A stretch of DNA of 64,000 nt from the NCBI RefSeq assembly GCF_010500245.1, contig NZ_JAAGOX010000053.1, positions 1-64,000 on the forward strand, in the 5' to 3' direction. The stretch is from Ruegeria sp. PrR005 (GTDB lineage: Bacteria; Pseudomonadota; Alphaproteobacteria; Rhodobacterales; Rhodobacteraceae). Position 1 is the stretch's first letter, and every line of letters starts with the position of its first letter. Under the pieces are notes generated by a model, which searched no databases, was not told the DNA's origin, and was given only the letters and a program-made list of their open reading frames with translations. The translations under genes were made by a program, and so were the position numbers. Below are positions 28,578 through 64,000 of the stretch, piece after piece.

Positions 28578-29750
28578 CTACCCGGGCCTGCCGACGCGTG
28601 GCTGGGTCAGGGCGGGCCACATGGACGTGAGGTACAGCGCAAAGGCCGCAACCCAGAGAACTCCGGTGGCCAGCATGGCCGGGCCATAGAAGTCAGCCAC
28701 CCCTGTCCCGAACCAGCGCATAAGCGCGGCCATCGCGATCAGGCCATAGCCCCAGGCCATCGGTCTGGACGCCACCAAGGGCCGCCCGGAATGGCCAAGG
28801 GCGGCGCGGCTCATCACCGCCAGGGTCATGCCGCCCACCCCGCCAATACCCAGCAGATGAACGCCGACGAGCTCGGGCATCAGATCGAACCCCGACAGCC
28901 CCCAGGCCACCATCCCAAGGGCCAGCATCGCCAGCGCCACATGCAGCGACAGAAGGATGGGTTGGCTCAGACACCACAGCCCCGCCCACCCGGCAAGCCG
29001 CAGCGCCAGCACGACACCGAATGCGATGGCCACAACACTCGTCCCCGTCTGGGACAGGTCGCTCGGGACGAGAGCGGGCAGAACAATCGCCAGGATCAGA
29101 CCCGCGCGCTCCAGCACAGGCCGCGATACCGGCCATTTCGCCTCCGGCTCACCGGCACGTTTCATGGCATTGCGGGTAAAGGCAGGCGTGATCCGGCCGC
29201 CAAGGACAGCGATCAGCGCGCATAATGTGATTAGCCCCGCGCGCAGCCCGGAGGAGGCGTCGCCGACCTCCAGACCGATCCAGTCGAGGTGAACCGACAG
29301 ATTCGCGCTCCACAGATAGCCCAGAAAGATCAGGAACATAAGGTTCTGCGGCTTTGGCCGCTTGATCAGCTGCGACAGGATCTTGAGCGCCAGCACCGGC
29401 AGAAAGGCGAGGTCCACCACCGCGACCAGCACCGGTGGCAAGGCCATGGCGTACCAGACGGCAAGCCGCCCCAGAAACCACAATCCGGCGGCCAGCGCGA
29501 TGAACCCGTGCCGGGCGCCCGGAGCGCCGGTCCAATTCGGAACCGCCGTCAGGAAAAAGCCGCCGATGGCCGCCGTGGCATATCCGAATATCATTTCATG
29601 CGCGTGCCACAGGCTGGGGGCATCCCCCAATCCCGGATCGTCCCCCGCGATGTAGAACGTCCAGACCAGGCCGGTGAACAGGCCATAAAGCCCGGCGGCC
29701 AGGAAAAACACCCGGAAACCTTCGGAAAACAATCGGGAAAACGCGGGCAT
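28578..29750 (-). CDS. nnrS: NnrS family haem-copper membrane protein
   Basis: The 390 aa integral membrane protein has about twelve segments. The N-terminus contains SLWHAHEMIFGYATAAIGGF followed by FLTAVPNWTGAPG, the diagnostic NnrS stretch with conserved His. NnrS contributes to protection of the cell from nitrosative stress during denitrification and is typically NO-regulated. It is divergent from nirS and shares the 165 bp intergenic region that carries an NNR-type box. It converges on the zntB-like gene with an 8 bp gap. Confidence 0.93.
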   Translation of the reverse strand: MPAFSRLFSEGFRVFFLAAGLYGLFTGLVWTFYIAGDDPGLGDAPSLWHAHEMIFGYATAAIGGFFLTAVPNWTGAPGARHGFIALAAGLWFLGRLAVWYAMALPPVLVAVVDLAFLPVLALKILSQLIKRPKPQNLMFLIFLGYLWSANLSVHLDWIGLEVGDASSGLRAGLITLCALIAVLGGRITPAFTRNAMKRAGEPEAKWPVSRPVLERAGLILAIVLPALVPSDLSQTGTSVVAIAFGVVLALRLAGWAGLWCLSQPILLSLHVALAMLALGMVAWGLSGFDLMPELVGVHLLGIGGVGGMTLAVMSRAALGHSGRPLVASRPMAWGYGLIAMAALMRWFGTGVADFYGPAMLATGVLWVAAFALYLTSMWPALTQPRVGRPG

Positions 29751-62112: not shown

Positions 62113-63228
62113 ATGCAGATACTCGACTACACGCATAACTTCTGGCTGGTGGCCGCATCGCTGTGCGTGGCGATGATCGCGGGTTTCACCGGGCTGTCGC
62201 TGACTCAGGGGCTGTCCAAGCGCAGCGTCAATCAGCGCAAGCTTGCGATTTCAATGGCTGCGATCGCGTTGGGTGGAGGCATCTGGTCGATGCATTTCGT
62301 GGCCATGCTGGGCCTGCAACTGCCGATACAGTTCTACTTTGACGCGACCGTCACGCTGATTTCGGCGCTGGTGGCCATTTTGGTGGTGGGTATTGCGCTG
62401 CTGCTCTTGCATTTCCGCCCGCGCACCCCCGCCGTTTTGGCGGGCGCCGGCATCATCGTGGGTCTCGGCATCATTGCGATGCATTATATCGGCATGGCCG
62501 GGTTGCAGCTGTGCAGACCCTTGTATTCGCCCGGAGGCATCACGCTGGCCGTGATCGGGTCTTGCGTGCTCAACATGGCGGCGTTCTGGATCGCTTACGG
62601 TCAGCGCAGTCACCGCAACATCCTGCTGGGCACCGTATGTTTCGGCAGCGCCGTTTTCATTGTTCATTTCGTGGCGATCTGGGGCACGTCGTTTGTCGCC
62701 ATCGGCGCCGAAGGCGACGTCGGCCCGATGATCGGCAAAGAGGTCCTTGCCATCGGTGTGGTCCTCTCCAGCTTTGTGCTCTGCGCGGCATTCCTGTTGA
62801 CGGGCATTTCCTTTGTGACACCTGCGCAACCCAAGCCCGAGACGGAAGCCCCCGTTCCACAAGAGTTGCCCGTAAAGAAGCCAGTCGAACCCAAGTTCGC
62901 CCGCCAGATCCCCTATGAACAGGATGGTCGCACGCATTTCTTCGATGCAAATTCCGTCGCCGCCATTCGGGCCGAGGGGCATTACACCCATATCTACGCA
63001 CAAGGGCGCAGATACTTCTGTGTCTGGTCCATCACCGAGGCCGAACGCCGGCTTGATCCCGCGACCTTTACCAAGACCCACCGCAGCTACCTGGTCAATC
63101 CCGCATTTGTCGAAAGCTTCGAGCGGCTAAAGGATAACGGCATCTGTCATATGAACTTGCCCGGCCTGCCGCGCGTGCCGGTCAGCCGGGCGCGGCTGAA
63201 GGCGGTGCGCGAGGTTCTTGGCGTCTGA
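62113..63228 (+). CDS. coxC: MHYT-LytTR membrane regulator, CoxC-like
   Basis: The 371 aa protein has seven N-terminal membrane segments with the three MHYT repeats GGIWSMHFVAML, GIIAMHYIGMAGL and FIVHFVAIWGT, whose Met/His residues are thought to bind a metal and sense CO, O2 or NO. After a Pro-rich linker a LytTR DNA-binding domain follows (about 260-371; VAAIRAEGHYTHIYAQGRRY, FTKTHRSYLVNPAFVESFER). This architecture is that of CoxC/CoxH of CO-oxidising bacteria, and coxM follows. It probably binds the phased repeats in the gap behind it. Confidence 0.88.
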   Translation: MQILDYTHNFWLVAASLCVAMIAGFTGLSLTQGLSKRSVNQRKLAISMAAIALGGGIWSMHFVAMLGLQLPIQFYFDATVTLISALVAILVVGIALLLLHFRPRTPAVLAGAGIIVGLGIIAMHYIGMAGLQLCRPLYSPGGITLAVIGSCVLNMAAFWIAYGQRSHRNILLGTVCFGSAVFIVHFVAIWGTSFVAIGAEGDVGPMIGKEVLAIGVVLSSFVLCAAFLLTGISFVTPAQPKPETEAPVPQELPVKKPVEPKFARQIPYEQDGRTHFFDANSVAAIRAEGHYTHIYAQGRRYFCVWSITEAERRLDPATFTKTHRSYLVNPAFVESFERLKDNGICHMNLPGLPRVPVSRARLKAVREVLGV

Positions 63229-63240
63229 CCGCGTGCGGCA

Positions 63241-63295
63241 CGCATTTCGTGTGCGGTCTTTCGCATTTCGTGCACAAAGCCTCTGTTTTCGGGTG
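63241..63295 (+). promoter_or_regulatory. Three 21-bp-phased direct repeats upstream of coxM
   Basis: CGCATTTCGTG occurs at 63241-63251 and 63262-63272, and a weaker CTGTTTTCGGG near 63284. The TTTCG cores start at 63245, 63266 and 63287, an exact 21 bp period, two helical turns. LytTR proteins bind direct repeats of about 9 bp at 21-22 bp intervals. An extra TTTCG at 63259 is out of phase. Confidence 0.65.
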
Positions 63296-63329
63296 AATCC
63301 TGTCGCCGACTTGGGCGGCCCATAGCAGC

Positions 63330-63363
63330 CTTCCCCTGCCAGAACTCGGCCTTGCAGGGGAGG
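63330..63363 (+). other. Hairpin covering the coxM ribosome-binding site
   Basis: CTTCCCCTGC (63330-63339) can pair with GCAGGGGAGG (63354-63363), ten pairs with one G-U, around a 14-base loop. The right arm is the GGGGAGG Shine-Dalgarno sequence of coxM, 10 bases before its ATG, so folding would limit translation initiation. Confidence 0.5.
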
Positions 63364-63372
63364 ACAAGCAAG

Positions 63373-64000
63373 ATGATACCGGCGGCGTTCGACTATTACC
63401 GGCCAAAGGACATGGGCGATGTTGTCGCCCTGCTACAGGAACACGGCGACGATGCGCGCGTCATGGCGGGTGGGCACAGCCTAATCCCGATGATGAAACT
63501 GCGCATGGCCGAAATCGCGCATTTGATCGACTTGCAGGATGTCGCAGGCCTTGGCGGGATCTCTGTCGAAAGTGGACAGATCACGCTGGGCGCCATGGTC
63601 ACCCAGCACGAGATCATTGACAGTGATGCACTCCGCGCGGCAGCCCCGATCCTGCACGAAGCGGCCTTGCAGATCGCCGATCCCCAGGTGCGCTACATGG
63701 GAACGGTTGGCGGCAATGTCGCCAACGGCGATCCGGGCAACGACATGCCGGGTTTGATGCAATGCCTGGATGCCACATTCACTCTGGTCGGACCGGACGG
63801 CAAGCGCGAGGTTGCGGCGCGAGGTTTCTATCACGCCGCCTATATGACCGACCGGGATGACAGCGAGGTCTTGACCTCAGTCAGCTTTGCCGCGCCCAAG
63901 GGCGGTTATGCCTACGAGAAGCAGAAGCGCAAGATCGGCGACTATGCCACTGCGGCAGCCGCCGTGCAGATCGAGAAAAGCGGCGGTGTCTGCGCAAGCG
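63373..64000 (+). CDS. coxM: CO dehydrogenase medium (FAD) subunit CoxM, cut by window end
   Basis: The 209 codons visible encode the FAD-binding subunit of a xanthine-oxidase-family molybdenum hydroxylase: VMAGGHSLIPMMKLRM (residues 31-45) and MGTVGGNVANGDPGNDMPG (109-127) are the two FAD-pyrophosphate motifs. CoxM passes electrons from the Mo-Cu and Fe-S subunits to the quinone pool. The upstream MHYT-LytTR gene marks it as coxM of a CO dehydrogenase rather than a different hydroxylase. Proof would be the CoxL active-site loop, which lies outside. The start is the ATG after GGGGAGGACAAGCAAG. Confidence 0.88.
   Translation, partial: MIPAAFDYYRPKDMGDVVALLQEHGDDARVMAGGHSLIPMMKLRMAEIAHLIDLQDVAGLGGISVESGQITLGAMVTQHEIIDSDALRAAAPILHEAALQIADPQVRYMGTVGGNVANGDPGNDMPGLMQCLDATFTLVGPDGKREVAARGFYHAAYMTDRDDSEVLTSVSFAAPKGGYAYEKQKRKIGDYATAAAAVQIEKSGGVCAS

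What the first reader, a model, noticed from the sequence alone, without database searches (positions are those of the whole stretch)
63241..63295. 21-bp-phased triple repeat between coxC and coxM
Three TTTCG cores start at 63245, 63266 and 63287. Two sit in identical 11-mers. Exact two-turn phasing next to a LytTR-domain gene is a strong sign of a LytTR operator array controlling CO dehydrogenase.
Basis: partly seen in the sequence, partly recalled or inferred. Interest (0 to 1): 0.65.

Follow-up and report, generated by a model that had tools for sequence, protein, structure and literature searches.

The report
CoxC operator array before coxM
Three evenly phased DNA repeats just before the carbon monoxide dehydrogenase genes are almost certainly the docking site of CoxC, the membrane CO sensor encoded next door; the same array sits in front of coxM in nearly every CoxC-bearing alphaproteobacterium tested, including the species in which CoxC was characterised, where that site appears not to have been described.

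Summary
TTTCG cores lie at 63245, 63266 and 63287, two of them inside identical 11-mers, and such an array is not expected by chance. The real unit is a 13-bp box, CGCATTTCGTGCA; repeats 1 and 2 are strong, repeat 3 is degenerate. The strong pair, 20 or 21 bp apart, is conserved in 79-80 of 80 coxC-coxM loci (mostly Rhodobacteraceae) and keeps 100-120 nt to the coxM ATG even when coxC lies 0.3-2.5 kb away. In 385 alphaproteobacterial genomes a stringent 20-bp-spaced form occurs four times, always between coxC and coxM. Three coxM loci without adjacent CoxC lack it; one with coxC 12 kb away keeps it. The genome has no RcoM-like protein. The site is very probably the CoxC operator of coxMSLDEF. 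This is a known kind: Afipia CoxC binds three repeats at PcoxB (PMC11347149). New are the place and the motif: Afipia OM5 also has this array in its coxC-coxM gap, the published PcoxB repeats do not match the motif, and coxB was not found in 19 other genomes or records searched. Binding, and whether CoxC represses or activates here, remain untested.

The parts
62113..63228 (+). coxC: MHYT (CO/copper sensor) membrane domain fused to a LytTR DNA-binding domain; probable cognate regulator
   Evidence: Pfam MHYT 3.2e-32 and LytTR 3.5e-16; only MHYT protein and one of two LytTR proteins in the genome
63241..63253 (+). Repeat 1 (R1) CGCATTTCGTGTG
   Evidence: 11 of 13 to the box; conserved 20/21 bp upstream of R2 in 80 loci
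63262..63274 (+). Repeat 2 (R2) CGCATTTCGTGCA, the strongest box; contains TTCGTGCA, an exact match to the RcoM consensus TTCNNGCA
   Evidence: RcoM consensus as quoted in PMC11347149
63283..63295 (+). Repeat 3 (R3) CTGTTTTCGGGTG, degenerate third repeat in phase
   Evidence: Excess similarity at +20/+21 from R2 across loci: 6.0-6.3 of 13 against a background of 3.3-3.4
63321..63326 (+). Candidate -10 (CATAGC), weak; would leave a poor -35 just downstream of R3
   Evidence: Inference from alignment with the YATGCA element of some relatives; the consensus scan found no sigma-70 promoter
63331..63361 (+). Possible 5'UTR hairpin (arms 63332-63342 and 63351-63361) overlapping the Shine-Dalgarno region
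   Evidence: window z = -2.5; mean z over loci -1.06 against +0.09 in the upstream control
63357..63363 (+). Shine-Dalgarno GGGGAGG of coxM
   Evidence: sequence; GGGAGG conserved in the alignment
63373..64000 (+). coxM (5' part; continues past the window), first gene of coxMSLDEF
   Evidence: Pfam FAD_binding_5; downstream coxS, coxL (AYRCSFR, form I), coxD, coxE, coxF in one direction

Best explanation
The array is the operator of the coxM promoter. CoxC, a membrane-anchored MHYT-LytTR protein encoded immediately upstream, docks its LytTR domains side by side on one face of the DNA at R1 and R2, helped by weak R3, and controls transcription of coxMSLDEF (form I CO dehydrogenase and maturation genes). 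By precedent CO binding at the copper-bearing MHYT domain changes the occupancy, so that the operon is switched on when CO is present. Shown here: the array, its conservation, its fixed position relative to coxM and its co-occurrence with CoxC. Inferred: binding by CoxC, CO response, and sign of regulation (repression relieved by CO about 0.5, activation about 0.4).
For: The pair of boxes at 20 or 21 bp is found in 79-80 of 80 coxC-coxM loci, including the window. Box positions are far more conserved than the spacers. R2 is always 100-120 nt from the coxM ATG whereas its distance to the coxC stop ranges from 3 to 2408 nt, so the array belongs to coxM. A PWM pair scan at 22 bits or more found no other hit in 1.1 Mb (both strands) of the same loci. 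The 20-bp pair pattern with up to 2 mismatches in 385 genomes gave 4 hits, all between coxC and coxM, and none for the backward control. Distant CoxC loci, including Afipia, Bradyrhizobium and Rhizobium, have it on the same strand. coxM loci without adjacent CoxC (L139, L142, L144) lack it, and a locus with coxC about 12 kb away (L129) keeps it. Only two LytTR proteins exist in the window's genome: CoxC and an unrelated 268-aa LytTR protein with a hydrophobic N-terminal half. The Afipia CoxC LytTR domain binds three direct repeats spaced about two turns, with CO relieving repression (PMC11347149).
Against: No binding data for this site. The published Afipia PcoxB fragment does not match the box PWM better than chance, so the family's measured site and this motif do not coincide. 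R3 is weak. No consensus promoter is recognisable, so the relation of the array to -35 is unknown. One distant locus (L132/L096) scores only weakly.
Confidence: 0.88

Rival explanations
1. The array is bound by RcoM (PAS-heme-LytTR), an activator, and not by CoxC.
For: R2 contains TTCGTGCA, an exact RcoM consensus TTCNNGCA, and the three-repeat layout with 13-bp spacers fits RcoM as described in PMC11347149.
Against: The window's genome has only two LytTR proteins, CoxC and a 268-aa protein with a hydrophobic N-terminal half, neither of them RcoM. The array tracks CoxC.
Confidence: 0.03
2. CoxC binds here as a CO-dependent activator: the array lies just upstream of a promoter with a poor -35, as in RcoM and most LytTR regulators, unlike the repressor arrangement reported at Afipia PcoxB. 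(A variant of the best explanation that differs in the sign of regulation.)
For: No consensus sigma-70 promoter in the gap. The candidate -10 aligned with the YATGCA element of some relatives would put a poor -35 a few bp downstream of R3. PMC11347149 states that most LytTR regulators bind upstream of -35 and activate.
Against: CoxC of Afipia represses PcoxB and CO relieves it (PMC11347149). The promoter here is not mapped.
Confidence: 0.4
3. The repeats are the 3' end of coxC or a neutral repeat that persists by descent.
For: In 32 of 80 loci R1 overlaps the coxC reading frame.
Against: The array stays with coxM when coxC is far away (L024, L056, L129), flanks are far less conserved than the boxes, and distant CoxC (30-50% identity) loci keep it.
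Confidence: 0.02
4. The three TTTCG cores are a chance phasing.
For: Short cores; a fourth TTTCG at 63259 is out of phase.
Against: 0 of 100,000 resamplings give the double feature; strong conservation.
Confidence: 0.01

Closest known systems
CoxC operator at PcoxB of Afipia carboxidovorans OM5 (PMC11347149)
   Same: Same regulator family (MHYT-LytTR, next to coxM), three direct repeats at about two helical turns, control of cox genes.
   Different: There it lies upstream of coxB, with repeats described as TTNNNGCN; here it lies between coxC and coxM, with box CGCATTTCGTGCA at 20/21 bp. The PcoxB fragment does not score with the box PWM, whereas the coxC-coxM gap of the same plasmid does.
RcoM-1 operator of Paraburkholderia xenovorans (as described in PMC11347149)
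   Same: Three direct repeats TTCNNGCA with 12-13 bp spacers before cox genes; R2 is an exact match and R1/R3 fit TTCNNGYR.
   Different: RcoM is a soluble heme-PAS activator; no such protein found in this genome.
Canonical LytTR sites (pairs of 9-bp direct repeats, 10-13 bp apart, as summarised in PMC11347149)
   Same: Direct repeats about two turns apart, recognised by a LytTR domain.
   Different: Longer box (13 bp) and a third, degenerate repeat.

Membership tests
CoxC (MHYT-LytTR) operator | Direct repeats phased about two helical turns next to cox genes | tested here: met
   20/21-bp pair in 79-80 of 80 loci; weak third repeat at +20/+21
CoxC (MHYT-LytTR) operator | Occurs with a CoxC protein and not without | tested here: met
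   Absent from three coxM loci lacking adjacent CoxC; present where coxC is adjacent or 12 kb away; only a weak array in L132
CoxC (MHYT-LytTR) operator | Published repeat sequence TTNNNGCN at PcoxB | tested here: inconclusive
   R2 (TTCGTGCA) can be read as TTNNNGCN, but the PcoxB fragment does not match the conserved box PWM (score -15.1, resampling p = 0.3)
CoxC (MHYT-LytTR) operator | Bound by the CoxC LytTR domain; CO with copper relieves binding | not testable with these tools
   Needs EMSA or footprinting
CoxC (MHYT-LytTR) operator | Operator overlaps -35 (repressor arrangement) | tested here: inconclusive
   No consensus promoter found
RcoM operator | Three TTCNNGCA repeats, 12-13 bp spacers | tested here: inconclusive
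   Looser TTCNNGYR x3 with 13-bp spacers, once in the genome; only R2 matches TTCNNGCA exactly
RcoM operator | RcoM protein encoded in the genome | tested here: not met
   Only two LytTR proteins, neither RcoM

The most novel reading that the evidence does not exclude
The conserved, ancestral target of CoxC is this array at the coxM promoter and not the published PcoxB site: the founder plasmid pHCG3 of A. carboxidovorans OM5 carries the array in its own coxC-coxM gap (first box at plasmid position 28727), and coxB was not found in the other CoxC/CoxM genomes searched. The published picture of CoxC regulation would then describe a lineage-specific secondary site and leave out the main one.
Probability: 0.7. 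Interest if true: 0.5.

Novelty: new member of a known kind. Interest (0 to 1): 0.42.

Why it matters
Marine Rhodobacteraceae commonly carry aerobic CO oxidation genes, and how they turn these on is little studied. The array gives a precise, widely conserved operator and motif for the CO sensor CoxC, predicts its regulon (one site in this genome), and points to an apparently undescribed operator in the organism where CoxC was characterised. It can be tested with short reporter constructs.

Tried and rejected
Strict triple TTCNNGYR pattern across relatives: only the closest relative matched, because R3 is degenerate; replaced by the 13-bp box and pair search. RcoM as binder: rejected for lack of the protein. 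A second array upstream of coxC (autoregulation): none at 22 bits or more in the loci scanned. A sigma-70 promoter by consensus: none. The terminator-like hit at 63231-63243 has only 5 pairs and is close to shuffle expectation; set aside. An alternative 21/20-bp reading of the Afipia PcoxB fragment (TTCATGCG, TTGGTGGA, TTTGGGCA) is possible but not significant with the PWM. Literature searches for a described coxC-coxM operator found only PMC11347149, whose text mentions coxM twice and not this gap; subscription journals are not held.

Full report
OBSERVATION. The three TTTCG cores (63245, 63266, 63287) and the identical 11-mers (63241-63251, 63262-63272) are there. A fourth TTTCG at 63259 is out of phase. 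The gap between the coxC stop (63228) and the coxM ATG (63373) is 144 bp. In resampled gaps the combination of an 11-mer repeat with a triple phased core never arose in 100,000 trials. TTCNNGYR three times with 13-bp spacers occurs once in the 5.07-Mb genome, here, and its backward control not at all.

SURROUNDINGS. The upstream gene, 62113-63228, has two MHYT stretches and a C-terminal LytTR domain, as in CoxC. The downstream operon is coxM, coxS, coxL (with the form I signature AYRCSFR), a MoxR-type ATPase (coxD), a VWA protein (coxE) and coxF, all in one direction (gene names from sequence and from established knowledge of cox clusters). The closest relative by coxC is Ruegeria marina (89% identity).

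CONSERVATION. 80 coxC homologue loci were fetched. In 79 of them, and in the window, coxM lies downstream, and a best-pair search finds two copies of CGCATTTCGTGCA 21 bp (55 loci) or 20 bp (25 loci) apart. That search maximises the match, so the better check is the PWM scan: 79 of 80 pairs score at least 22 bits (the last 21.7), median 40, whereas no other pair on either strand of these loci reaches 22 bits in 1.1 Mb. The PWM was built from the same loci with the window left out; the window pair scores 40.0, and the next non-overlapping pair in the window 7.9. Information content is high in the boxes and low in most of the spacers. Distance from R2 to the coxM ATG is 100-120 nt in all, while the distance to the coxC stop runs from 3 to 2408 nt. 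In loci with long gaps or intervening DNA (L005, L010, L011, L013, L014, L037, L024, L056) the array stays with coxM. A third, degenerate repeat shows at +20 or +21 from R2, where similarity to the box is 6.0-6.3 of 13 against a background of 3.3-3.4. In 32 of 80 loci R1 lies partly or wholly in the coxC reading frame.

DISTANT LOCI AND SPECIFICITY. The coxC-coxM gaps of Afipia, Bradyrhizobium, Rhizobium and most of the diverse alphaproteobacteria have the array on the same strand, with resampling p at or below 0.005, L096/L132 being the exception at p = 0.05. A 20-bp-spaced pair pattern with up to two mismatches found four sites in 385 genomes; all four lie between coxC and coxM, and the backward pattern found none (coordinates). 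This pattern misses 21-bp-spaced sites, the window's among them, so the count is a specificity test and not a census. Three coxM loci without adjacent CoxC (L139 and L142, in genomes with no CoxC hit, and L144, a second coxM copy in G184) have no array, and L129, whose coxC lies about 12 kb away, has it. The negative group is small. In the random null one draw scored 43.7, probably because it included a true array; the 95th percentile is 0.9.

WHO BINDS. The genome has two LytTR proteins: CoxC and a 268-aa protein with a hydrophobic N-terminal half. No RcoM-like protein was found. The published CoxC of Afipia binds three direct repeats through its LytTR domain, represses PcoxB, and is released by CO in the presence of copper (PMC11347149). 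The LytTR domains of the window, Afipia, Bradyrhizobium and Rhizobium share HRSY..N and VPVSR stretches. CoxC is therefore the likely binder; this is an inference.

DIRECTION. No consensus promoter is found. An alignment suggests a -10-like element (CATAGC at 63321, aligned with YATGCA in some relatives), which would put the array just upstream of a poor -35. That would suit activation; the Afipia precedent suits repression. I leave the sign open.

COMPARED WITH WHAT IS KNOWN. The kind is known: triple direct-repeat LytTR operators for CO regulators. What the paper held here does not describe is the coxC-coxM site. In Afipia OM5 itself the gap holds CGTATTTCGTGCA at plasmid position 28727 with weaker boxes at +20 and +40, while the PcoxB fragment does not match the box PWM. 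A coxB homologue was not found in 19 genomes or records with CoxC or CoxM, and a positive control on pHCG3 rang. The best reading is that PcoxM is the general CoxC target.

SECONDARY FEATURES. A 5'UTR hairpin may cover the coxM Shine-Dalgarno: window z = -2.5, mean z -1.06 over the loci against +0.09 for the region just upstream. A perfect palindrome GCATRC-N4-GYATGC (or its inverse) lies exactly 48 bp from the R2 start in nine of 55 loci, not in the window. Neither was pursued to a conclusion.

Noticed in passing
63331-63361: Strong hairpin whose 3' arm overlaps the coxM Shine-Dalgarno; related loci also fold more stably than shuffles here (mean z -1.06 against +0.09 upstream), hinting at translational control.
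   Followed up: partly
L054, L055, L058, L066, L072, L073, L078, L083, L009: 48 bp downstream of the R2 start: Perfect palindrome GCATRC-N4-GYATGC (L009: GTATGC-N4-GCATAC) at an identical position in nine loci (about 0.4 perfect palindromes expected at any position); possibly a second operator or part of the promoter. Not present in the window.
   Followed up: partly
L085 6215-6270 (Afipia carboxidovorans OM5 pHCG3, from 28727): CoxC-type boxes in the coxC-coxM gap of the founder organism (CGTATTTCGTGCA, TGCTTTTGGTGAC, GATGTCTGGTGCG, 20 bp apart), not mentioned in PMC11347149.
   Followed up: yes
L002 1486-2292 (minus strand): Second LytTR protein of this genome, 268 aa with a hydrophobic N-terminal half, between a phosphoesterase-like and a FolD-like gene; function unknown.
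   Followed up: no
L061: coxC homologue with no coxM nearby and no array in the locus.
   Followed up: no
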